The translations under genes and the position numbers were made by a program. Positions 6,872 through 18,320 of a stretch of DNA of 20,191 nt are shown here, piece after piece. Numbering within the stretch: position 1 is the first letter of the stretch; each line of letters begins with the position of its first letter. The DNA is from Candidatus Dormiibacterota bacterium (GTDB lineage: Bacteria; Chloroflexota; Dormibacteria; UBA8260; Bog-877), in the NCBI GenBank assembly GCA_003133485.1, contig PKXR01000098.1, forward strand, positions 1-20,191, read 5' to 3'. The notes beneath the pieces are model-generated. The model was not told where the DNA came from. It searched no databases and saw only the letters and a program-made list of their open reading frames with translations.

Positions 6872-8236
6872 CTACTGCGCGCCGCTCACCAACTCCAGAC
6901 CGACCTCCTCGAGCCGTCCGATGTCGTCGTCCACCAATACCACCTCGCGGCCAGCTCGGTCGAGCAGGCTGGCGGCGACGGCGGCCCGATACCCGGCAGC
7001 GCAGTGCACCCAGGTGGGCCGAACGGGAAGCTCGTGGAGCCTGTTCGGCAGGTCGGCGAGGTGGATGTTGATCGCGTTCTTGATGTGGCGGGCGCGCCAC
7101 TCATCGGGACGGCGGGCGTCGAGGATCTGGACATCCCGGGACCGGACAGCCTCCGCGAGGCCTCGGAAGTCGGTGACTAGATAGGAGGAGCTTTCGAGGG
7201 CAGCCTCCAGCTCGGCAAGCGGGGCGCTCGACCAGCCGGCGAGCCCGTCGATTCCGATCCGGGCGAGGTCCCGACGAGCCCGCCTGACGACCTCTCGGGA
7301 GCTGGCCACCAGGGTAAGCGGCGCACCCCAGGGGACGACCCACCCAACGTAGGTCGCCAGTTGGTCGCCGGTCGGGAAGTTCACCGTGCCCGCCACGTGC
7401 GATGGCCCGAACTCGGTCCTTGGCCGAAGGTCAATGACCCACTCGCCGGCCTGGATGCGACTTCCGACTTCGGCGATGTCGATTTCGGGAGGCAGGGCGA
7501 GGTCTGGGTTCGACGCGCCCTTCAGATTGAGAGCGCTCATGTGGGCGTAGTAGCGGGGATACAGGGAGTACCCCGCCAGCAGCGTCCTGACGAAGCCCTC
7601 CTCATCGTCGGTCATGGCGGGATTGCTGGCGCGCTGAGTGCCGATGGTGTGGCTCGGTTCCGTCGACGAGATAGGCCCGCTGGCGCAGAAGCTTCCGAAG
7701 CCGTGGGTGGGATAGAGGTCCAGCTCCGCCGGTAGGGCGGCCAAACGCAGAACCGATCGGTGTTGGGCGTGGGCCAGCTCTTCGGTGAGACTCGGCGAGA
7801 CCAAGTCGGTGCGACCGACCGCTCCATACAGGAGCGAGCCCCCGCTGAAGAGCGCTCTTGGTCTGTTCTCGGCCCCCACCAAGAAGGAGAGATGGCTCGA
7901 GGTGTGTCCGGGAGTGGCCAGCGCCTGCAGGGTCATGGAGCCGACATCGACCCGGTCCCCCTCACCCACCGGTTCGCGGGGGAAGGAGACGTCGTCGGCA
8001 GCGGCGACCAGATAGCGGGCTCCCGCTGCTTGGGAGAGCGCCCACCCCCCGGAGACGTAGTCGTTGTGGATGTGGGTCTCCACCACGCAGCTGATCTTGA
8101 CCCGGGCCGAGTCGGCCAGCTCCATCACTCGGTCGGTGTCGCGCTGGGGATCGACAACGATGCTCTGCTGCCCATCGTGGATGAGATAGGTGCGGTCCCC
8201 GAGTTCAGGCGTCTCCAGGGTTACTACCTCGACCAA
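6872..8236 (-). CDS. MBL-fold hydrolase with two rhodanese domains (persulfide dioxygenase-like)
   Basis: Probable cytoplasmic sulfur-metabolism enzyme of the ETHE1-like MBL/rhodanese group. From the TTG at 8234-8236 it has 454 residues. The MBL fold (about 1-235) contains THIHNDYVSGG (His55, His57, Asp59, with Tyr60 where HxHxDH has His), His111 in TPGHTSSHLSF, and PTHGFG (His178). The strand that normally reads GDTL is SGGSL (132-136), so the usual metal-ligand Asp is missing. The first rhodanese domain (about 252-350) lacks a catalytic Cys (TLVASSREVV). The second (about 355-450) has an intact loop CAAGYR with Cys412. The start was chosen because TGGAGG lies 7 nt upstream and the protein begins at the first MBL strand; an upstream in-frame extension looks untranslated. 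It is the first gene of the six-gene array. Confidence 0.9.
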   Translation of the reverse strand: MVEVVTLETPELGDRTYLIHDGQQSIVVDPQRDTDRVMELADSARVKISCVVETHIHNDYVSGGWALSQAAGARYLVAAADDVSFPREPVGEGDRVDVGSMTLQALATPGHTSSHLSFLVGAENRPRALFSGGSLLYGAVGRTDLVSPSLTEELAHAQHRSVLRLAALPAELDLYPTHGFGSFCASGPISSTEPSHTIGTQRASNPAMTDDEEGFVRTLLAGYSLYPRYYAHMSALNLKGASNPDLALPPEIDIAEVGSRIQAGEWVIDLRPRTEFGPSHVAGTVNFPTGDQLATYVGWVVPWGAPLTLVASSREVVRRARRDLARIGIDGLAGWSSAPLAELEAALESSSYLVTDFRGLAEAVRSRDVQILDARRPDEWRARHIKNAINIHLADLPNRLHELPVRPTWVHCAAGYRAAVAASLLDRAGREVVLVDDDIGRLEEVGLELVSGAQ

Positions 8237-8445
8237 GCTCAGGCCTCCAGAAATCCACCTGTCGCGGTGCTCAAATCGCGCGGATCGCCCAGCCCTGGCG
8301 GTCTGCCCCATCTCGCTGCCGGCGACCGCGGGTAGTGTGACAGACGATCCTTGTGTACGGACCGAGCGCAGGCTGGGAAAGTGCTGAGAAGTCAAAAGGG
8401 GGCCCGGACCGCAACGACACCTCCCGGTGCTGAGCGACTCCCGAA

Positions 8446-8455
8446 TGACGCGTCA
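8446..8455. promoter_or_regulatory. Perfect 10-bp palindrome, candidate operator
   Basis: TGACGCGTCA is identical to its reverse complement. It lies in the divergent region, about 210 bp from the MBL-rhodanese start and 185 bp from the FolD-fusion start. The form suits a dimeric regulator, but one copy alone is weak evidence. Confidence 0.3.
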
Positions 8456-8476
8456 CGCGGTCAGCGCCATTCCGAG

Positions 8477-8496
8477 GCACGCATATATCAGCGTGC
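8477..8496. promoter_or_regulatory. Inverted repeat GCACGC-N8-GCGTGC, candidate operator
   Basis: Perfect 6-bp arms flank the 8-nt centre ATATATCA, one of the few AT-only stretches in the region. The centre holds a TATATC element that could act as a -10 box toward the FolD-fusion gene, so a regulator bound here would cover it. No matching -35 was found. Confidence 0.33.
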
Positions 8497-8558
8497 TGCC
8501 GATCCCGCCTGCTACGGTCGGGCCATCAAATCAGCGTTGGTGACTAGCCGAACGGGCG

Positions 8559-8598
8559 GTGCCTTCGGGAGGGCCTGGGTGGTGTCGCCTTCCGGCAC
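8559..8598 (+). promoter_or_regulatory. Leader hairpin upstream of the FolD-fusion Shine-Dalgarno
   Basis: CGGGAGG (8566-8572) pairs with CCTTCCG (8588-8594), 7 bp with one G-U, around a 15-nt loop. GTGC (8559-8562) pairs with GCAC (8595-8598) after a 3-nt bulge. The structure ends 8 nt before AGGAGG, placing it in the 5' leader, where it could affect ribosome access. Confidence 0.38.
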
Positions 8599-8606
8599 TC
8601 AACTTT

Positions 8607-8612
8607 AGGAGG
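8607..8612 (+). promoter_or_regulatory. Strong Shine-Dalgarno AGGAGG without a normally spaced start codon
   Basis: AGGAGG has a full match to the 16S 3' end. The codon at ideal distance (8618-8620) is ATC, whose frame reaches TAG at 8648-8650 after ten codons. The first ATG of the FolD-fusion frame is at 8641, 28 nt away. This leaves the fusion's true start unsettled. Confidence 0.5.
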
Positions 8613-8640
8613 CGCCGATCACGAACCAAGCGGTGGCCGT

Positions 8641-9954
8641 ATGGGTCTAGGCGCCGGGGGCGGCCTCACGACGAATTCAGCACCGGCCAACTTGGTCGAC
8701 CTCGCCCCCCTCCTAGAGGAGCTCCGGGCACAGCTGGCAGATCGCGTTCAGGCTAGGCAGCGTCCATACCGTCTGGGGGTAGTGGTCGAGGAAGGCAACA
8801 TCGCCGGTGGCTCGTTCGCCCGCTCCCTGGAGCAAGAGGCAGTGGCGGGGGGAGTTGAGGTCGTGCACTGGACGGTGCCCCGGGACAATTCGGAGAGGAC
8901 CCTCACCGTTCTCGACGCCCTGGTGGTGGACCCCAGCGTGAACGGGGTGGTGGTGGTTCAACCAGTGAAGTCGCTGCCTGCTGGGGTGGTGGCGGCCCAC
9001 CTGCCCGCCAGCAAGGACGTCGAGGCCGTCACCCCGGCGGCCCTCTCGGCCGCGGCTGAGGGCCAGCGCCGGGGGACGCCGGTTGCGGAGGCCTGCCTGG
9101 CGACCCTGAACCACCTCGAAATCGACTGTGCGGGGGCTCGCATTCTGGTGGTCGGCCATGGGTCGACCGGCGGCCGCCCGATCGCCCAGCGCCTGCTCGC
9201 TACCGGAGCCCAGGTTTCGGTGATCCAGAGCGACATCGCCCATGTCGATCCTCTGCCCCCATACGACGTGCTGATCTCTGCGATCGGGATCGCCGGGGTC
9301 ATGCCAAAGGCCGCGATCCGCCTCGGAACAACGGTGCTGGACGTGGGGACCTCGATGGTCGAGGGTCAACTCCGCGGCGACGTTTCACCAGATGCCGGCG
9401 CGGCGGCCGCCCGGGTTACCCCGGTGCCTGGTGGGATCGGCCGGATCACCGCCGTGTGCGCGCTGCTGTCCTTGACCGAGCTCGGGGGGCTTCAGCCCGG
9501 CCCGGTCGCCTCCTGGTCACTGCTCGAGACGGTCGCCCGGATGCTCTCCCCTCGGGATGCGGCGGGCGGTGCCGCCGCGGCCGCGATCACCGGGGCCCTG
9601 GCGGCTGCCTTGGACGGGCTCTGCCGGTTGCACGCGCCCGCGGAGGAGATCTCTGAGTCCGGGCAGGCGGCGGTGCGACTCCTGCTCGCCGCCGATCGGG
9701 ACAGGCTGGCGTTCGGAGCGTTCCAGGATGCCCAGCGGCACGGAGAACCAGCGACGGTCGCGGCGGCCCGCCTCCGGGCGCTGGCGACTCCCGGTGAGAT
9801 CGCGGACCAGCTCCACCTGCTCGAAGTTCGGCTGCGGTCCCTCCAGACGACCCCGTCGTTGGACCTGGACCGGCGGTTGGCCCTAGAGCTCACCGTGGCC
9901 GCCCGGGAGGCCGTCACCCGGCTCCAGGCTGAGTTCTCCTCTCAGTCTTCCTGA
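8641..9954 (+). CDS. FolD homologue fused to a C-terminal FTCD_C/FchA-like (cyclodeaminase/cyclohydrolase) domain
   Basis: 437 residues. About 20-285 align with FolD (methylene-THF dehydrogenase/methenyl-THF cyclohydrolase): LLEELRAQLADRV, VVVVQPVKSLP, the dinucleotide loop VVGHGSTGGRP (170-180), LDVGTSMV and TPVPGGIGRIT (260-270). Of the E. coli FolD active-site residues Tyr50, Lys54, Gln98 and Asp121, only Gln is kept; the others are Phe59, Leu63 and Glu128. About 288-437 resemble FTCD_C/FchA: SLLETVARMLSP, then AAGGAAAAAITGALAAAL (family PTPGGGS(A)A...), then ADRDRLAFGAF and a helical end. This half is about 50 residues shorter than stand-alone FchA and has a degenerate glycine motif. It probably acts in cytoplasmic folate one-carbon metabolism; catalysis is unproven. 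It ends 1 nt from the convergent alcohol dehydrogenase. Start uncertain: no Shine-Dalgarno at the ATG. Confidence 0.85.
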   Translation: MGLGAGGGLTTNSAPANLVDLAPLLEELRAQLADRVQARQRPYRLGVVVEEGNIAGGSFARSLEQEAVAGGVEVVHWTVPRDNSERTLTVLDALVVDPSVNGVVVVQPVKSLPAGVVAAHLPASKDVEAVTPAALSAAAEGQRRGTPVAEACLATLNHLEIDCAGARILVVGHGSTGGRPIAQRLLATGAQVSVIQSDIAHVDPLPPYDVLISAIGIAGVMPKAAIRLGTTVLDVGTSMVEGQLRGDVSPDAGAAAARVTPVPGGIGRITAVCALLSLTELGGLQPGPVASWSLLETVARMLSPRDAAGGAAAAAITGALAAALDGLCRLHAPAEEISESGQAAVRLLLAADRDRLAFGAFQDAQRHGEPATVAAARLRALATPGEIADQLHLLEVRLRSLQTTPSLDLDRRLALELTVAAREAVTRLQAEFSSQSS

Positions 9955-9955
9955 T

Positions 9956-10951
9956 CTAGGGAACCAGGACAGCCGCTCCAGACACGCGGCCTTCCTCAAG
10001 CTGCCTTAGGGCCGTGTTGGCCTCACGTAGGGGAAATCGCTCGACCAGCGTACGGACGGGAATCTGCTCGGACAGTTGGAGAAACTCGGCGGCATCCTGG
10101 CGGGTGAAGTTGGCGACGCTGAGGAGCCTCCGTTCCCAGTAGAGCAGTTCGTACGGGAATTCGGGGATCCGATCTAGGTGGATCGCGTTCACGACGCAGG
10201 TGCCTCCTCGGTCCAGCGCTCGCAGCGCATCGACCACGACTGCCCCCACCGGGGCGAACGTAATCGCTGCCTGTAGAGCTACCGGGATTTCGTCGCCAGG
10301 AGCGCCCACCCAGGCCGCGCCCTGATCCTTAGCTCGCCGACGGGCCGACACGTCTCGAGTCACGACGAACACCTCGCAACCCGCGGCGATCGCGAGCTGA
10401 GCCACCAGCAGCGCCGACGCTCCGAAGCCGAACAGGCCCAGACGGGCCCCTCGGCCAACCTCGGTGAGGCGCCACGCGCGATAGCCGATCACCCCCCCGC
10501 AGAGGAGAGGGGCCTGCTGGACCGCATCGCCGTCGCCGGCTAACCGCTGCGCGAAGTCCGCCCGCACCGCCACTTGGCTGGCGAACCCTCCGTCCCGGTC
10601 CCAACCCGTGAAGGTCGCCTGGCGACAGAGGTTCTCTCGGCCGCCCTGGCATAGCTCGCAGCTGCCACAGGCGAAAGCCAGCCACCCCACCCCGAGCCGC
10701 TGACCGAGCAGCTCCCCGGCAACTCCCTGACCCAGCTCTTCCACTCGCCCCACGATCTGGTGCCCAGGCACGACGGGGAACTTCCTGGCGGGAAGTTCGC
10801 CGGAGGTGATCTGGAGGTCGGTCCGACAGACGGCACAAGCTTCCACCCGTAGCCGCACCTCGCCGGGCCCCGGGCTCGGGTCGGGCCGCTGACTCCACCG
10901 CAGCGCTGCCAGCCGACCCTCGACGGGAGCCGGAAGTTCCATCGCCTCCAT
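9956..10951 (-). CDS. Zinc-dependent alcohol dehydrogenase, MDR superfamily
   Basis: NAD(P)-linked oxidoreductase interconverting alcohols and aldehydes; substrate unknown. Numbered from the ATG at 10949-10951, Cys42 (CAVCRTD), His64 (PGHQIVG, with Gln where many relatives have Glu) and Cys151 (LLCGGVIGYRA) are the likely catalytic zinc ligands. Cys95, Cys98, Cys101 and Cys109 (CGSCELCQGGRENLC) form the structural zinc lobe. The Rossmann loop is GLFGFGASA, the variant seen in a recognised subfamily of zinc-binding dehydrogenases. Length (331) is normal. GTG at 10952-10954 and ATG at 10940-10942 are alternative starts; GGAGG lies just before the latter. It is convergent with the FolD fusion (1 nt between stops) and divergent from the MurE-like gene (53 nt), so it forms a single-gene unit. 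Confidence 0.92.
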   Translation of the reverse strand: MEAMELPAPVEGRLAALRWSQRPDPSPGPGEVRLRVEACAVCRTDLQITSGELPARKFPVVPGHQIVGRVEELGQGVAGELLGQRLGVGWLAFACGSCELCQGGRENLCRQATFTGWDRDGGFASQVAVRADFAQRLAGDGDAVQQAPLLCGGVIGYRAWRLTEVGRGARLGLFGFGASALLVAQLAIAAGCEVFVVTRDVSARRRAKDQGAAWVGAPGDEIPVALQAAITFAPVGAVVVDALRALDRGGTCVVNAIHLDRIPEFPYELLYWERRLLSVANFTRQDAAEFLQLSEQIPVRTLVERFPLREANTALRQLEEGRVSGAAVLVP

Positions 10952-11004: not shown

Positions 11005-12501
11005 ATGCGTTGGTCCGTGCTCGCGGCCGCGATTCAGCGGCCGCCGGTTGTCGAATCGATCGGGGCCAGCGAGGTTTTCGCGGTCACCTACGATTCACGG
11101 GAAGTGCGACCCGGATCCGTTTTCGTCGCCATCCCCGGTCAGCATCAGGATGGACACAATTTCGTGGAAGCCGCGCTCGCCCAGGGAGCGATCGTGGCGG
11201 TGGTCGAGCAGGACGTGCCGGCGGCCGACTCCGGGCGCCTCGTCGTGGTCGACGACAGCCGCTCGGCCCTGGCGGTTCTCGCGGCGACCTTCTATCGCCA
11301 TCCCTCGAATGCGGTCCCAGTGGTGGGCGTCACCGGCACCGATGGCAAGACCACCACCACGACCATGCTGCACGCCGCCCTCTCCGCCGCACTGGGGAAG
11401 GTGGGTAGCCTGAGCACCGTGGACTTTCGCCTGGGCTCTGAGATCGAGCCCAACCTCAGCCGGCAGACCACCCTGGAGTCGCTGGAACTCCAGGCTTGGA
11501 TGCGCCGCATGGTGGACCAGGGATGCCAGGCGATCGCACTGGAGTCGACATCCCACGGCCTGGCACTGGGACGGCTCAACGAGATTCGCTTCGCAGGCGC
11601 CGTGTACACCAGCATCACTCACGAGCACCTGGACTTCCACGAGAGCTGGGAGGCGTACTTCGAAGCCAAGGCCTCACTGTTGGATCGGGCGGCTGCCGCC
11701 GGGGGCTTTGCGGTCCTCAACCGCGACGACTCGCGGGCGTTTCCGGTGCTGCGCGATCGAACCTCGGCCCGAGCCCTTACCTACAGCGCGAGCGGGGACG
11801 GGGAGGCGGATCTCCGAGCTGAGCGGGTTAGCCCCCAAACGACAGGGGTCATCTTCTCCGCGGTGACCCCGGCCGGAACCGCCGAGGTCAGGCTGTCGAC
11901 CGCCGGGCGCTGGAACGTCGGCAACGCGCTGGCCGCCCTGGCCGCCGGACTGCTCTTGGAACAACCGCTACTAGCTCTAGTAGCCGGCTTGACCGAGCTG
12001 CGGGCCGTGCCGGGCCGTATGGAGGCGGTCAACCTAGGCCAGCCCTTCGCCGTAGTCGTCGACTACGCTCACACCCCGGCCGCACTGACCCTCGCTCTGC
12101 ACGAGCTGCGGGGGGCGACCGCAGGTCGGCTCTGGGTGGTATTCGGGAGCGCGGGGGAGCGGGACATCACCAAGCGCGCGGAGATGGGTAGGATCGCCGC
12201 CCAGCTTGCCGACCAGTTAATCATCACCTCCGAAGACCCCAGGGGAGAGGACCCGGAGGCGATCATCGACGAGATCTGGGGCGGGGCAGTTGCCGGCGGC
12301 GCCGACCCCGAAGCCAACCTGCACCGGGACGCGGAGCGGGACCGGGCGGTCCGCATCGCGATCGGAGCAGCCATGCCTGGGGACACCGTCCTCCTGGCCG
12401 GGAAGGGTCACGAGCGCAGCATCATCGGAAGCACGGGGGCGATACCGTGGGACGAACGGGTAGCTGCGGAGACGGCGCTGCGGGAACTCAGAGGGTTTTG
12501 A
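11005..12501 (+). CDS. murE: MurE-type Mur ligase (UDP-MurNAc-tripeptide synthetase family)
   Basis: Cytoplasmic ATP-dependent ligase that would add the third residue of the peptidoglycan stem peptide. 498 residues with the full Mur layout: N-terminal UDP-substrate domain (TYDSREVRPGSVFVAIPGQ, DGHNFVEAALAQGA), P-loop GTDGKTTT (111-118), ALESTSHGLALGRL, HLDFHESWEAYFEAKASL with Lys222 as the expected carbamylated lysine, then NVGNALAALAA, PGRME, VDYAHTPAAL and GSAGERDITKRAEMGRIA. The third-residue specificity loop reads SEDPRGEDP (409-417), a variant of the DNPR motif of diaminopimelate-adding MurE that keeps Pro and Arg. No other mur gene is present. GGAGG lies 23 nt before the ATG, too far to be ideal. 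It is followed 50 nt later by hutH on the same strand. The exact amino acid added is uncertain. Confidence 0.88.
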   Translation: MRWSVLAAAIQRPPVVESIGASEVFAVTYDSREVRPGSVFVAIPGQHQDGHNFVEAALAQGAIVAVVEQDVPAADSGRLVVVDDSRSALAVLAATFYRHPSNAVPVVGVTGTDGKTTTTTMLHAALSAALGKVGSLSTVDFRLGSEIEPNLSRQTTLESLELQAWMRRMVDQGCQAIALESTSHGLALGRLNEIRFAGAVYTSITHEHLDFHESWEAYFEAKASLLDRAAAAGGFAVLNRDDSRAFPVLRDRTSARALTYSASGDGEADLRAERVSPQTTGVIFSAVTPAGTAEVRLSTAGRWNVGNALAALAAGLLLEQPLLALVAGLTELRAVPGRMEAVNLGQPFAVVVDYAHTPAALTLALHELRGATAGRLWVVFGSAGERDITKRAEMGRIAAQLADQLIITSEDPRGEDPEAIIDEIWGGAVAGGADPEANLHRDAERDRAVRIAIGAAMPGDTVLLAGKGHERSIIGSTGAIPWDERVAAETALRELRGF

Positions 12502-12510
12502 AAAGTGGGA

Positions 12511-12555
12511 ATGATCACCGGCGAGACGCCGCGCTCATCGAGGGCGGACGGGTGA
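12511..12555 (+). other. Possible 14-codon leader peptide coupled to hutH
   Basis: An ATG at 12511 opens a 14-residue frame ([14 protein letters not shown]) ending in TGA at 12553-12555, which overlaps the hutH GTG at 12552-12554 (GTGA). GTGGGA precedes the ATG closely. It contains no His codons, so it is not a classical attenuation peptide. It may be chance, or may deliver ribosomes to hutH. Confidence 0.25.
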
Positions 12556-14102
12556 GCTCCGCTCTGCCGGAGCAGATCACGTTGGGCTCCGACGGAGTTT
12601 CTCCGGAAGCGGTGGTGGCGGTTGCGCGAGATGCGGCCAGGGTGGAGATCTCCGCCGAAGCCCTGGCCTGCATGGAGCGGGCCCGGGCTCTCGTGGACCA
12701 GGCCGGCAGCAGTCCGGACCCGGTGTACGGAGTGTCGACCGGTTTCGGCTTGTTGGCCACGACCAGGATCGATCCCGACCGCCGGGCCGACCTACAACTC
12801 GCCCTGATCCGCTCCCACGCCGGCGGGATGGGAGACCCTGTCGAGAGGGAAGTGGTGCGTGCCATGATGCTGCTCCGGGCCCGCACTCTGTGCATGGGTT
12901 TCTCCGGCAGCCGGCCCGCCGTGGCGACGGGGCTGGTTGACCTGCTCAACGCCGGGATCACCCCAGTCGTACCCGAGCACGGCTCGCTGGGCGCCAGTGG
13001 CGATCTGGCTCCCCTCGCCCACATGTCGCTCGTGCTGGTGGGGGAGGGCCGCGCCCAGCTCGCCGACGGCCGCACCGTGGATGGCGGCCTCGCGCTCACG
13101 GAATGCGGCCTGACGCCGCTCCGCCTGGAGGTCAAGGATGGGCTCAGCCTGATCAACGGCACGGACGGGATGCTCGGGATGCTGGTGCTGGCCCTGGCCG
13201 ACCTCGCGGTGCTGCTCCCCACCGCGGATGTCGCGGCTGCCCTCTCGATTGAGGGACTGATGGCGACCGATCGTCCATTCGCCGCTGATCTCCATAGCAT
13301 CCGGCCCCATCCCGGCCAGATCCAGAGCGCGGCCAATCTTCGGGTGCTCCTGCGAGGCTCCGCGGTCCTGGCTTCGCACCGCGGCTCTCCCCACCTGGTC
13401 CAGGATCCCTACTCGATCCGTTGCGCCCCCCAGGTGGTGGGGGCGGCGCGCGACACGACGGAATTCGCCCGCCAGGTCGCTGGCCGCGAATTGAGGTCCG
13501 CGGTGGACAACCCGGTGGTGCTCCCGGACGGGCGGCTGGAATCCACCGGTAACTTTCACGGCGAGCCGCTGGCGTTCGCCTGCGACTTCCTCAGCATCGC
13601 CGCCGCAGAAGTTGCCTCGATCGCTGAGCGCCGAGTCGATCGGATCCTGGACCCGGCCCGCTCCGCCGGATTGCCCCCCTTCCTGGCCCCTGAGGCCGGG
13701 GTCAACTCGGGACTGATGATCGCTCAGTACACGGCCGCCGCCATCGTGGCGGAGAACCGGCGGCTGGCCGCTCCCGCCAGCGTGGACTCCATCCCCACCT
13801 CCGGGATGCAAGAGGACCACGTATCCATGGGCTGGGGGGCGGCCCGCAAGCTGCGCCAGGTGGTGACCAACCTGTCCCGGGTGCTCGCCGTGGAGCTGCT
13901 GGCCGCCTCCCGGGCGCTGGAGTTGCGGGCGCCCCTCGAGCCGTCAAAGGCGGATGCCCAAGTGGCGGGGCTGGTACGCCGACTGGGTGGCGGGGTTGGC
14001 CCGGACCGCTTCCTCTCTCCCGAACTGGAGGCGGTGGCCGCCGCCGTGAGGTCGGGCGAGATCCTGCGCCAAGCGGAGTCGATCGTGGGGGAGCTCCCTT
14101 GA
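12552..14102 (+). CDS. hutH: Histidine ammonia-lyase (histidase)
   Basis: Removes ammonia from L-histidine to give trans-urocanate, the first step of histidine degradation in the cytoplasm. The product is 516 residues from the GTG start, normal for the family. The Ala-Ser-Gly triad that cyclises into the MIO cofactor is at 148-150 ([14 protein letters not shown]). Other family motifs are VYGVSTGFG (58-66), [36 protein letters not shown], the [10 protein letters not shown] substrate region and [12 protein letters not shown]. The GTG at 12552 was chosen because the protein then begins about eight residues before the first conserved strand and is preceded by GAGGGCGGA. A TTG overlapping the murE stop would add 18 poorly protein-like residues. 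The 3' end overlaps hutU by 4 nt (TTGA). Confidence 0.97.
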
Positions 14103-15754
14103 CCGGGGCACGGCCGGTGAGAGCCCCTCGGGGAACCGAGATCAGTTGCAAGGGCTGGCCCCAGGAAGCGGCGATGCGGATGCTGATGAACAACCTCGAC
14201 CCCGAGGTGGCGGAGAACCCCGATCAGCTGGTGGTCTACGGCGGTTCGGGGCGTGCCGCCCGCTCCTGGGAAGCCTATGACGCGATCATCCGCAGCCTGC
14301 GAGAGCTGGAAGGCGATGAGACGCTCCTCGTCCAGTCCGGCAAACCGGTCGGGGTATTCCGCACCCACGAGTGGGCTCCGCGGGTGCTGATCGCGAACGC
14401 CATGCTGGTGCCTCAGTGGGCGACCCAGGAGGAGTTCCGTCGGCTGGAGCTGGAGGGTCTGACGATGTACGGGCAGATGACCGCCGGCTCCTGGATCTAC
14501 ATCGGCACTCAGGGCATCCTCCAGGGCACTTACGAGACCTTCGCCGCGATCGCCACGAAGAGGTTCGGCGGGTCGCTGGCCGGGACGGTTTCCCTGACGG
14601 CCGGATTGGGCGGGATGGGGGGCGCTCAACCACTGGCGGTGACCATGAACGGTGGGGTGGCCCTCTGCATCGAGATCGACCCGGAGCGCATCCAGCGCCG
14701 AATCGACCACCGCTACCTGGACCGCTGGGCCGCCGACCTCGACTCAGCGCTGGAGCAGGCGGATGCGGCAAGAGCCTCTCGGGAAGCGGTCTCGATCGCG
14801 GTCCTCGGCAACGCCTCCGAGCTCGTTCCCGAGATCCTGAAGCGCAACTTCAAGGTGGACATCGCGACCGACCAGACCCCGGCTCACGACCCCCTCATGT
14901 ACCTGCCAGCCGGGCTGACCCTACCGGAGGCGACCGACCTGCGATTGGAGGATGCCGACGATTACATCCGCCGCAGCCGGGAGTCGATGGCCCGGCACGT
15001 CACGGCCCTGGTGGAGCTGCAGGACCGGGGCACCGAGGTCTTCGACTACGGCAACAGCCTCCGCGCGGAGGCCGAGCTGGGCGGCTGCACTAGGGCCTTC
15101 GACTACCCGGGCTTCGTCCCGGCCTACATTCGGCCTTTGTTCAGCGAGGGCAAGGGCCCCTTCCGGTGGGCGGCCTTGAGCGGTGACCCGGAGGACATCG
15201 CCGCCACTGATCGGGCTGCCCTGGAGGAGTTCCCGGAGAACGAGGCGCTCGCGCGCTGGATCCGGATGGCCGAGGAGCGGGTCGCTTTCCAGGGACTGCC
15301 GGCCCGGATTTGCTGGCTGGGATACGGGGAGCGGGACCGGCTCGGGCTCCGGTTCAATGAGATGGTCGCTACGGGTGAGCTGAAGGCGCCGATCGTGATC
15401 GGTCGGGACCACCTCGACTCGGGCTCGGTCGCTTCTCCCTACCGGGAGACGGAGTCGATGCGGGACGGCAGCGACGCGATCGCTGACTGGCCGATCCTCA
15501 ACGCGCTCCTCAACACCGCGAGCGGGGCGACCTGGGTCTCCGTTCACCACGGCGGCGGGGTGGGGATCGGCCGGTCGATCCACGCCGGACTGGTGGCGGT
15601 GGCCGATGGCTCGGAGCTGGCGGGCCAGAAGCTGGCCCGCTGCCTCTTGAACGATCCTGGCACCGGGGTTATCCGCCACGCCGACGCCGGCTACCCGATC
15701 GCCCTGGACACAGCCGCTGACCGCGGAGTTCGAATCCCCATGCGGGAGGATTGA
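14099..15754 (+). CDS. hutU: Urocanate hydratase (urocanase)
   Basis: Adds water to urocanate to form 4-imidazolone-5-propionate using tightly bound NAD+, the second step of the pathway. 551 residues, normal length. The N-terminus [20 protein letters not shown] is the urocanase signature region; the NAD-binding loop is GGMGGAQP (171-178); the active-site cysteine is Cys405 in [30 protein letters not shown] (435-451) and [11 protein letters not shown] (481-491) complete the fold. The TTG start overlaps the hutH stop as TTGA, with GGGGGAG 6 nt upstream; a GTG at 14117 would be a slightly shorter alternative. The stop overlaps the hutF ATG by 1 nt (TGATG). Confidence 0.98.
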
Positions 15755-17127
15755 TGACCGCTTGGCTGGCAGAGCTGGCCTGGATCGGGGATCGGCTCTT
15801 GCCGAGGGTCCTTTTGGAGGAGGAGGGTGGCCGGCTGCGCCGGGTGGAAGAGTTGGGCCACGCGCAAATCCCTGAGGGAGCGAAGGTGCTCTCCGGCCTG
15901 ACCCTCCCGGGGCTGGTCAACGTCCACTCGCACGCTTTCCACCGGGCGTTGAGAGGGCGATGCCAGGCGCCCGGACAGAGTGGGAAGGACTTCTGGGGAT
16001 GGCGGCGCTGGATGTATGCCCTGGCCTCGTTCCTGGAGCCCGACCAGTACTTCGAATTGTCCCGAGCGACCATGGGGGAGATGACGCTCGCCGGCATCAC
16101 CGCGGTCGGGGAGTTTCACTACCTCCACCACCAACCGGGCGGGCAGCCGTATCGGCGGCCCGAGATGGAGGAAGCGTTGGTCGCGGCTGCAGAGGAGGCG
16201 GGATTGCGACTCACCCTGCTCGACACCTGTTACCTACGCTCCGGCTTTGACGGCAGCCCGCTGGGGAGTGCCGCCCTCCGGTTCACCGATGGGGAGGCCG
16301 ACGCTTGGGCTCGGCGGGTCGATCGGCTAGCAGAGAGCTCCCGGGTCCGCCGGGGTGCGGCGATCCACAGCGTCCGGGCGGTCGACCAGGATGCCATGCG
16401 CGTGGTCGCGGAGTGGGCCTTCGAGCGGAGAGCGCCTCTTCACCTCCATCTCTCGGAGCAGCTGGAGGAGAACGCCGCCTGCCTGCAGGCGACCGGCCTG
16501 ACCCCGACTGAACTGGTGGATTCCTGTGGCGCCCTAGGCGCCCAGACGACCGCGGTTCACGCGATTCACCTCACCAGGAGCGACATCGCGAGATTGGGCG
16601 AGACCGGCACCAGGATCTGCGTCTGTCCCACCACCGAGCGGGACCTTGGGGATGGGGTCTGCCCGGCGGATGAGCTCCAGGCGGCTGGCAGCCCAATCTG
16701 CCTGGGCAGCGACAGCAACGCCTTGGTCGATCTGTTCGAGGAGGCTCGGGCGATCGAGCTCGATCGCCGCCTGGTCACCGGACACCGGGGTTGGCTTAGC
16801 TCCGAGGACCTGCTGAAGGCGAGCACCTCCCAGGGTGCCGCGGCCCTGGGATGGGATGCCGGAGAGCTTCGGACAGGCTGCCTCGCCGATTTCACGACCT
16901 TGGAGCTCTCCAGTCCCCGGCTGGCCGGAGCCGGACTGGCCGACCTCCTGCCGCGGGTGGTTTTTGGGGCCAGCGCCGCGGACGTGCGCTCCGTGATCGT
17001 GGGAGGTGAGGAGGTGGTCCGGGACGGCCGGCACCTGCGGCTGGGGAGCGTGGCGGAGAAGCTGGAGAGCGTATTGGAGGCATTGGAGCCGGCTTGGAGC
17101 GAGGCATTGGCGGGCATGTCCTCTTGA
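15754..17127 (+). CDS. hutF: Formiminoglutamate deiminase (amidohydrolase family)
   Basis: Hydrolyses N-formimino-L-glutamate to N-formyl-L-glutamate and ammonia, so this organism uses the five-step HutF route. 457 residues. Metal and catalytic residues of the amidohydrolase barrel are visible: His58 and His60 (NVHSHAFHRAL), His232 (HLHLSEQ), His269 (TAVHAIHL) and Asp320 (CLGSDSNALVD). HutF-specific stretches include DFWGWRRWMYALAS, GEFHYLHHQPGGQPY and CPTTERDLGDGVCP, which separate it from HutI and other amidohydrolases. The ATG at 15754 follows GGGAGGA by 3-4 nt and overlaps the hutU stop by 1 nt; a TTG just before it is poorly spaced. The acid product would need HutG, which is absent here. 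The stop overlaps the hutI TTG (TTGA). Confidence 0.95.
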   Translation: MTAWLAELAWIGDRLLPRVLLEEEGGRLRRVEELGHAQIPEGAKVLSGLTLPGLVNVHSHAFHRALRGRCQAPGQSGKDFWGWRRWMYALASFLEPDQYFELSRATMGEMTLAGITAVGEFHYLHHQPGGQPYRRPEMEEALVAAAEEAGLRLTLLDTCYLRSGFDGSPLGSAALRFTDGEADAWARRVDRLAESSRVRRGAAIHSVRAVDQDAMRVVAEWAFERRAPLHLHLSEQLEENAACLQATGLTPTELVDSCGALGAQTTAVHAIHLTRSDIARLGETGTRICVCPTTERDLGDGVCPADELQAAGSPICLGSDSNALVDLFEEARAIELDRRLVTGHRGWLSSEDLLKASTSQGAAALGWDAGELRTGCLADFTTLELSSPRLAGAGLADLLPRVVFGASAADVRSVIVGGEEVVRDGRHLRLGSVAEKLESVLEALEPAWSEALAGMSS

Positions 17128-18320
17128 ACACCCTGCTCTCCCACGTGGGCCGGCTCTTCACCGGCGGCCAGTCGGTCGCCGAGAACGTGGAAGTCATGCT
17201 CGGTGAGGGCTCGATTCTCGCGGTCGGTGGGAGCGGCTCCCTCGCTTCGGCGGCCGACGCCGAAACCTATGACTGCCGGGGCGCGCTGCTCACCGCGGGG
17301 CTGATCGATGCCCACACCCATCCGGTCTACGCCCACCCCCGGCTCGCCGAGATCGCCGAGCGTTCCGCGGGAGTCGACTATGCGGAGATCGCAGCCCGCG
17401 GAGGCGGCATCAGGGCCACCGTCCGAGATACCCGAGACGCGCCGTGGGCGGAGTTGGAGCTGGGGGTTAGGGACCGACTTCAGCAGTGGTTGCACGGCGG
17501 GACCACCACCGTGGAGGCGAAGACCGGCTACTGGCTGGAGCGAGACGGCGAACTGCGAGCGGTGAGACTGCTTCGGGAAATTGCCGGCGATGTCCGCCTG
17601 CCCGAGCTGGTGGTGACCTTCCTGGGAGCGCACGCGCTGCCAGAAGAGTTCGACGGCCGCCGCCAGGCATTCGTCGACGAGGTGGGTAGCTGGAGCGCGG
17701 CGGCGCAGCGCGAGGGCGCACGTTTTGCTGATGTTTTTTGCGATGAGGGGGCCTTCACGGTGGCCGAGTCGGCGCAAATTTTACACGCCGCCCAGGAGGC
17801 GGGCTTGGAATTGCGCGTCCACGCTGATGAGCTGGCGCTCACTGGGGGGACGAAGTTGGCGACTGAGCTGGGGGCGGTCTCTGCCGATCACCTGCTGCGC
17901 ATCGGCGCTGCCGAGATCGCGGCCCTGGCCGATTCCTCGACGGTCGCGACTCTCTGCCCGGTGACCGCTCTGGCCATGGGTCGAACGCCTCCTGCGCGCG
18001 AGCTACTCGCCGCCGGGGTATCGGTGGCCCTGGGCAGCGACCACAACCCGGGCACTTCGGGTGGAACTTCCATGAGCCTGATCGTCTGGCTGGCGATCAC
18101 CGAGTTCGGACTCAGCGTGGACCAGGCGCTCACCGCCGCCACCCTCGGGGGGGCCCGCTCCGTGGGGCTTCCGGATCGCGGTCAGATCGCCCCTGGAAAA
18201 GTTGCAGACCTGGTGCTCTGGGGCACCGATCACGAGGGTGGGTTCGGGTGGAGCCCGGACCTCCAGCCGCTGCAGGTCTGGCGGGCGGGCAGGCCGTGCC
18301 TCGGGCCGCCCGCCGCTTAG
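17124..18320 (+). CDS. hutI: Imidazolonepropionase
   Basis: Hydrolyses 4-imidazolone-5-propionate to N-formimino-L-glutamate, the third step of the pathway. From the TTG at 17124 it has 398 residues, in the usual range. Metal-site residues are His64 and His66 (IDAHTHPVYA), His233 (RVHADEL), His256 (SADHL) and Asp306 (LGSDHNPGTSGG). Family motifs GGGIRATVRDTR, TTTVEAKTGYWL and LGAHALPEEF are present. TTG is preferred because it overlaps the hutF stop as TTGA and fits the family N-terminus; a GTG at 17094 would add ten residues inside hutF. No good Shine-Dalgarno is seen, so coupling is likely. Its stop TAG overlaps the stop of the convergent rsmG. Confidence 0.97.
   Translation: MNTLLSHVGRLFTGGQSVAENVEVMLGEGSILAVGGSGSLASAADAETYDCRGALLTAGLIDAHTHPVYAHPRLAEIAERSAGVDYAEIAARGGGIRATVRDTRDAPWAELELGVRDRLQQWLHGGTTTVEAKTGYWLERDGELRAVRLLREIAGDVRLPELVVTFLGAHALPEEFDGRRQAFVDEVGSWSAAAQREGARFADVFCDEGAFTVAESAQILHAAQEAGLELRVHADELALTGGTKLATELGAVSADHLLRIGAAEIAALADSSTVATLCPVTALAMGRTPPARELLAAGVSVALGSDHNPGTSGGTSMSLIVWLAITEFGLSVDQALTAATLGGARSVGLPDRGQIAPGKVADLVLWGTDHEGGFGWSPDLQPLQVWRAGRPCLGPPAA

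What the first reader, a model, noticed from the sequence alone, without database searches (positions are those of the whole stretch)
8641..9954. FolD fused to an FTCD_C/FchA-like domain, with the FolD cyclohydrolase residues lost
Seen: a FolD-like half in which the residues at the positions of E. coli Tyr50, Lys54 and Asp121 are Phe59, Leu63 and Glu128, in ungapped local alignment around N-x-A-x4-(Y/F)-x3-(K/L); Gln107 and the dinucleotide loop are kept. The C-terminal 150 residues resemble the FTCD_C/FchA family. Known: the Tyr/Lys pair is needed for methenyl-THF cyclohydrolase activity of FolD; FchA of Methylobacterium is a stand-alone methenyl-THF cyclohydrolase of that fold; FTCD_C can also deaminate formimino-THF. 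Inference: the FolD half may be dehydrogenase-only, with cyclohydrolase activity moved to the fused domain, giving a rebuilt bifunctional enzyme. The FTCD_C glycine motif is degenerate (DAAGGAA instead of PTPGGGS), so a non-catalytic folate sensor or scaffold is the main alternative.
Basis: partly seen in the sequence, partly recalled or inferred. Interest (0 to 1): 0.8.

Follow-up and report, generated by a model that had tools for sequence, protein, structure and literature searches.

The report
Rebuilt folate enzyme replacing FolD
In one lineage of bacteria the usual two-step folate enzyme FolD appears to be missing, and a single fused protein stands in its place: a FolD-like half that has lost the residues for the second step, joined to a domain shaped like a separate enzyme known to do that second step.

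The parts
8641..9954 (+). FolD-like / FTCD_C-fold fusion gene, 437 aa (ATG start as listed; start codon not proven)
8710..9024 (+). FolD substrate-binding (THF_DHG_CYH-like) region, residues 24-128
9079..9468 (+). FolD NAD(P)-binding domain, residues 147-276
   Evidence: PF02882 82.3 bits, cut-off 27
8815..8829 (+). Phe59...Leu63 in place of catalytic Tyr50...Lys54 of E. coli FolD
8956..8961 (+). Val106-Gln107: Val at the place of Gln98, Gln one place later
9022..9024 (+). Glu128 in place of Asp121
9157..9159 (+). His173 in place of the Arg of the GRS motif that lies at the NADP site of other FolDs
   Evidence: 33 of 33 Arg in ordinary FolDs; place of this Arg from PMC6443876, passages
9493..9531 (+). 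Linker and start of the first C-terminal helix, residues 285-297; model confidence under 50 at 285-293
9532..9951 (+). FTCD_C/FchA-fold domain, residues 298-437
9565..9570 (+). Gly309-Gly310, remnant of the PGGG loop of FTCD_C
9700..9702 (+). Asp354, at the place of an Asp invariant in 40 of 40 FchA/FTCD_C sequences
   Evidence: 49 of 49 fusion rows, 43 of them distinct
9868..9870 (+). Asp410, at the place of the second Asp invariant in 40 of 40 FchA/FTCD_C sequences
   Evidence: 46 of 49 fusion rows; two Asn, one row cut off

Best explanation
The protein is the main or sole 10-formyl-THF-forming enzyme of a Dormibacterota lineage. Its FolD half oxidises 5,10-methylene-THF to 5,10-methenyl-THF (dehydrogenase only, perhaps with NAD since the NADP-site Arg is His). 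The fused FTCD_C/FchA-fold domain hydrolyses the methenyl-THF to 10-formyl-THF. Bifunctionality, lost from the single FolD active site, has thus been rebuilt from two domains. Shown by computation: domain folds (predicted models), residue replacements, purifying selection on both halves, absence of another FolD across the lineage's draft genomes, and Lys-less FolD genes beside FchA-like genes elsewhere in the phylum. Inferred: both catalytic steps, the coenzyme, and any transfer of methenyl-THF between the halves.
For: (1) 16 of 110 class genomes hold the fusion and none of them holds another PF02882 match over cut-off; 76 of the other 94 hold a PF02882 match over cut-off and no fusion. PF00763 finds nothing but the fusion in these genomes (a match in 13 of 16, none in 3). 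(2) In the 16: Fhs absent in 15, FTCD_C-family genes over cut-off absent in 14, FTCD absent in 14, PurH present in 16, fmt over cut-off in 12. 10-formyl-THF is needed and in at least 14 no other known source is seen. (3) Elsewhere in the phylum 30 of 30 FolD loci drawn with a Lys-less query have Ile or Leu for Lys54, and 21 of the 30 have an FTCD_C gene next to them, upstream and on the same strand, against 0 of 28 Lys-bearing loci. (4) C-domain fold: best PDB matches are the two members of this family; two invariant Asp are kept. (5) E. coli FolD K54N has no detectable cyclohydrolase but ~19% dehydrogenase activity (PMC5688156, passages). (6) dN/dS 0.07-0.21 (N half) and 0.04-0.31 (C half) over seven pairs.
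Against: The Pro and third Gly of the glycine loop and both invariant Asn of FTCD_C are replaced; the Pfam FTCD_C cut-off is not reached. Changes at Tyr50 and Asp121 greatly lower E. coli FolD activity (PMC6443876, passages), so the dehydrogenase is not assured. Methenyl-THF can hydrolyse spontaneously and E. coli mutants without detectable cyclohydrolase grow, if slowly (PMC5688156), so the second step need not be enzymatic. The 21 Lys-less FolDs with an FchA-like neighbour all keep Gln98 and Asp121; the four Lys-less FolDs that share the fusion's Glu at 121 (L136, L137, L138, L144) are among the nine without FTCD_C in the flanks seen. In the class, Lys-bearing FolD coexists with FTCD_C genes (for example G018, G200).
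Confidence: 0.55

Rival explanations
1. Dehydrogenase half only: the FTCD_C-fold domain is a non-catalytic oligomerisation or folate-holding part, and methenyl-THF hydrolyses on its own.
For: Part of the glycine loop and both Asn of FTCD_C are lost; E. coli FolD mutants without detectable cyclohydrolase still grow (PMC5688156, passages); Lys-less FolDs without an FchA-like neighbour exist (9 of 30).
Against: The two invariant Asp are kept and the domain is under purifying selection; 21 of 30 Lys-less FolD loci of the phylum have an FchA-like gene.
Confidence: 0.24
2. Both activities stay in the FolD half through replacement residues (Glu128, Gln107, His173, Arg268); the C domain is structural.
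For: These residues are invariant in the 35 aligned relatives, so that site is still under selection.
Against: Neither the Lys nor the Tyr is left; K54N abolishes detectable cyclohydrolase in E. coli FolD.
Confidence: 0.07
3. Non-enzymatic folate or nucleotide sensor, or an enzyme acting on another substrate.
For: Very long branch, about 5.6 changes per column in all, between the fusion and the ordinary FolDs, and change of all four substrate-site residues.
Against: Would leave at least 14 of 16 genomes without any visible 10-formyl-THF source although PurH is present.
Confidence: 0.1
4. The C domain is a formimino-THF cyclodeaminase serving histidine breakdown by the nearby hut genes.
For: The FTCD_C family includes cyclodeaminases; hut genes lie about 2.5-8.4 kb from the fusion in the window, and FTCD lies about 11 kb from the fusion in G331.
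Against: The window's hut cluster has HutF (NF006681 582.7 bits, cut-off 362), a route that makes no formimino-THF; FTCD is absent in 14 of 16 fusion genomes.
Confidence: 0.03

Closest known systems
FolD / MTHFD (PF00763 + PF02882), e.g. E. coli FolD, human MTHFD1/2
   Different: Tyr50, Lys54, Gln98, Asp121 and the GRS Arg are replaced; an extra C-terminal domain
FchA of Methylobacterium extorquens (7vg4) and the cyclodeaminase TM1560 (1o5h)
   Different: 19-20% identity, shorter (152 aa), degenerate P-G-G-G loop, both Asn replaced, fused to FolD
Separate Lys-less FolD with an adjacent FchA-like gene in other genomes of the phylum (21 of loci L136-L165)
   Same: FolD with Ile/Leu for Lys54 beside an FTCD_C protein
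   Different: Two genes, FchA-like gene first; Tyr50, Gln98 and Asp121 kept in all 21
Lys-less FolD with Glu at 121 (L136, L137, L138, L144; P0063)
   Same: Ile for Lys54 and Glu for Asp121; L136 and P0063 also have the Gln shifted by one place
   Different: Tyr50 kept, not fused, no FTCD_C gene in the flanks seen
Monofunctional methylene-THF dehydrogenases: yeast NAD-dependent enzyme (1edz); acetogens with separate enzymes
   Different: Not fused to a cyclohydrolase-fold domain
MTHFD1 (FolD fused to formate-THF ligase)
   Same: A FolD fused to another one-carbon folate enzyme (PMC11064299, passages)
   Different: Different partner; human MTHFD1 keeps Tyr52, Lys56, Gln100 and Asp125 (PMC6443876, passages)

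Membership tests
FolD (bifunctional dehydrogenase/cyclohydrolase) | PF02882 NAD(P)-binding domain over cut-off | tested here: met
   82.3 bits, cut-off 27
FolD (bifunctional dehydrogenase/cyclohydrolase) | PF00763 catalytic domain over cut-off | tested here: not met
   29.9 bits, cut-off 32.8; over cut-off for the fusion in 5 of 16 related genomes
FolD (bifunctional dehydrogenase/cyclohydrolase) | Y-x3-K, Gln98 and Asp121 | tested here: not met
   Phe, Leu, Val and Glu; Phe59, Leu63 and Glu128 invariant in the 35 aligned relatives
FolD (bifunctional dehydrogenase/cyclohydrolase) | Both activities measured | not testable with these tools
   needs purified protein
FTCD_C / FchA (PF04961) | Pfam gathering score 24.5 bits | tested here: not met
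   9.8 bits for this domain; best score shown for a relative 18.7 bits
FTCD_C / FchA (PF04961) | Five-helix fold of 1o5h / 7vg4 | tested here: met
FTCD_C / FchA (PF04961) | P-G-G-G loop | tested here: not met
   A-G-G-A; two of three Gly kept
FTCD_C / FchA (PF04961) | Two Asp invariant in 40 of 40 relatives | tested here: met
   Asp354 in 49 of 49, Asp410 in 46 of 49 fusion rows
FTCD_C / FchA (PF04961) | Two Asn of the N-V-x-I-N-L motif | tested here: not met
   Arg427 and Glu431 in that alignment, which is uncertain in the last helix
FTCD_C / FchA (PF04961) | Cyclohydrolase or cyclodeaminase activity | not testable with these tools
   needs purified protein
Monofunctional methylene-THF dehydrogenase (yeast type) | Fold of 1edz | tested here: met
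Monofunctional methylene-THF dehydrogenase (yeast type) | NAD-dependent dehydrogenase without cyclohydrolase | not testable with these tools
   only the loss of Lys and of the NADP-site Arg was seen

The most novel reading that the evidence does not exclude
A whole bacterial lineage has thrown away FolD's near-universal shared active site and rebuilt the bifunctional enzyme as a two-domain protein that passes methenyl-THF from a dehydrogenase half to an FTCD_C-fold half; half-way states, Lys-less FolDs with and without an FchA-like neighbour gene, still live in other genomes of the phylum.
Probability: 0.38. Interest if true: 0.75.

Novelty: new variant of a known kind. Interest (0 to 1): 0.6.

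Why it matters
FolD, whose single site does both steps, is found across nearly all life (PMC11064299, passages). A lineage in which that site is dismantled and the second step seems to have moved to a fused domain would show how an essential bifunctional enzyme can be replaced, offers living intermediates to test (Lys-less FolDs, many beside an FchA-like gene), and warns against calling such proteins bifunctional FolD from the fold alone, as some sources do (names). It would also sharpen metabolic models of Dormibacterota.

Tried and rejected
Single-sequence Pfam scan of the C domain: too weak. Profile-profile comparison of the C domain with class FTCD_C by hhalign gave low probabilities, 4.3% local and 7.6% global, E 0.0096 and 0.0012 (in that run L095, L100 and L107 were read on the wrong strand and four to six loci skipped). 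With this put right, plain HMM searches gave at best 13.0 bits one way and 15.1 bits (L095) the other; the PDB profile hit and the fold comparison decided. MtdA-type route (PF09176): 0 of 16, but nothing rang in the controls either, so uninformative. THF riboswitch or other RNA: only a tRNA in the window. Promoter and terminator scan of 8350-10100: none found. Tree: meant to include other phylum FolDs, but the script took none (49 rows: 16 fusion, 33 ordinary, one of these, L032, from outside the class); it shows one fusion clade on a very long branch, warns that long branches meet, and cannot place its origin. Simple read-through fusion of the neighbouring gene pair: disfavoured, since in 21 of 21 pairs the FchA-like gene comes first, whereas the fusion has FolD first. 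Literature: no paper on a FolD-FchA fusion or on FolD in Dormibacterota was seen in the listings and in the listed part (15 of 4,327; 10 of 42); only titles and starts of abstracts were seen there. The FchA structure paper was not found. PMC7219735: passages seen, little used. One fusion row, L077, has letters before about residue 66 that do not belong to the family match; its Tyr and Phe at 59 and 63 are therefore not counted against the motif, and it was left out of the tree. My draft confidence was lowered a little after one search showed that the Lys-less FolDs with Glu at 121 have no FTCD_C neighbour.

Full report
The gene. The ORF at 8641-9954(+) reads as 437 residues without a stop. A protein search found 77 proteins at E <= 1e-3; 59 of them, with the query making 60, form a tight family (60-89% identity among the full-length ones), then a gap to other FolD-type proteins at 27-36%. 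A search with the alignment added one family fragment (P0079) and no new full-length member. Of the 12 family members for which one search shows a readable organism name, 11 say Ca. Dormibacteria/Dormibacterota/Dormibacteraeota and one Ca. Nanopelagicaceae. I aligned 35 of the 60. Motif counts over all 60: the F-x3-L motif in 56, K-D-V-E-A in 57, G-H-G-x2-G-G-R-P in 58, the start of the C domain in 56; the misses are short or partial entries except P0028 (463 aa), which lacks the third motif.

Replacement of FolD. In G001, the genome of the nearest relative found, the fusion is the only PF02882 match. In 110 genomes of its class, 92 have PF02882 over cut-off: 16 have the fusion and no other match over cut-off, 76 have another FolD, some of these fragmentary, and no fusion. 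If another FolD were present in the 16 and missed as often as in the other 94 (18 of 94), missing all 16 would have a chance of about 3e-12 (treats misses as independent). The distribution is probably one evolutionary event: the fusion is one clade with a conserved neighbourhood, HIT, MoeB, fusion, ADH and MurE, all five found in 9 of the 12 fusion genomes fetched; in G290 the contig ends, in G332 the order differs, and in G331 the fetched stretch ends beside the fusion. G333, listed among the fusion genomes, has neither fusion nor other FolD over cut-off.

Need for 10-formyl-THF. Of the 16 fusion genomes PurH is in 16 and fmt over cut-off in 12, with near, partial or weaker matches in the other four. 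Formate-THF ligase is in 1 (G332), FTCD_C-family genes over cut-off in 2 (G331, G332), FTCD in the same 2. So in at least 14 the fusion is the only member of the families searched that could make 10-formyl-THF. This is an argument by elimination from draft genomes, and an MtdA-type route was not properly excluded.

Lys-less FolDs elsewhere. P0063, a Lys-less FolD among the nearest non-fusion relatives, was searched in 400 genomes of the phylum. Of the 30 best loci, 30 have Tyr50 but Ile (29) or Leu (1) for Lys54. They were chosen by likeness to a Lys-less query, so that number is biased; the neighbourhood is not. In 21 of 30 an FTCD_C gene lies next to it, upstream and on the same strand (one of them cut off by the contig end), against 0 of 28 Lys-bearing loci (Fisher 4.6e-9, not corrected for kinship). 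Wider flanks (up to about 9 kb, or the contig) gave no FTCD_C for the other 9, nor for 20 of the 28 Lys-bearing ones. A result against a simple story: the 21 with a neighbour all keep Gln98 and Asp121, while of the 9 without, 5 have His for Gln98 and 4 have Glu for Asp121; the latter are the most like the fusion. So two kinds of Lys-less FolD exist, and the fusion shares residues with the one and the partner with the other. Also, in the class, Lys-bearing FolD coexists with FTCD_C genes (for example G018 and G200).

Mechanism. Best reading: the N half is a dehydrogenase and the C half the cyclohydrolase. Passages of PMC5688156 report that E. coli FolD K54N loses detectable cyclohydrolase but keeps about 19% dehydrogenase, and that hydrolysis can be spontaneous; passages of PMC6443876 tie Tyr50 and Asp121 to substrate binding and the GRS Arg to the NADP site. 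So loss of FolD-type cyclohydrolase in the N half is very likely by analogy, retention of dehydrogenase is likely but not assured, and NAD preference is a guess. A passage of PMC9124964 gives the precedent of monofunctional enzymes in acetogens. A cyclodeaminase role is unlikely, since the window's hut genes include HutF and FTCD is absent in 14 of 16 fusion genomes. Both halves are under purifying selection (dN/dS 0.07-0.21 and 0.04-0.31 over seven pairs).

Verdict. A real, conserved protein family, not FolD in the strict sense nor Pfam FTCD_C by score, but built from both folds and very probably standing in for FolD. New variant of a known kind. The catalytic claims need assays. The phylum and class are those of G001 in the genome collection, whose members are unnamed.

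Noticed in passing
loci L139, L142, L143, L145-L150, L154-L165 (21 of L136-L165): FchA-like gene next to and upstream of a FolD with Ile/Leu for the catalytic Lys in other genomes of the phylum; a possible split of FolD's two activities that deserves its own study.
   Followed up: partly
loci L136, L137, L138, L140, L141, L144, L151, L152, L153: A second kind of Lys-less FolD with His for Gln98 (5) or Glu for Asp121 (4) and no FTCD_C gene in the flanks seen; how these genomes do the second step is open.
   Followed up: partly
window 12447-18320; L122, L123-L124: The window's hut cluster (HutH, HutU, HutF, HutI) uses HutF, while fusion genomes G331 and G332 have FTCD near hut genes instead: a swap of the two formiminoglutamate routes within one lineage.
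   Followed up: partly
P0082: A 562-aa protein labelled with both FolD domains and PF13277 and PF00149 (metallophosphoesterase-type, recalled): another FolD fusion, by precomputed Pfam labels only.
   Followed up: no
window 6872-8395; L001, L133: A metallo-beta-lactamase/rhodanese protein lies between HIT and the fusion in the window, G001 and G330; no match at 1e-10 was seen in the other fetched regions.
   Followed up: no
G333: Genome listed among the fusion genomes that has neither fusion nor other FolD over cut-off, though it has PurH and fmt; perhaps a gap in the draft.
   Followed up: no
L077, before about base 880: The first ~50 family positions of the fusion are missing and the frame continues upstream in letters that do not match the family; assembly error or rearrangement.
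   Followed up: partly
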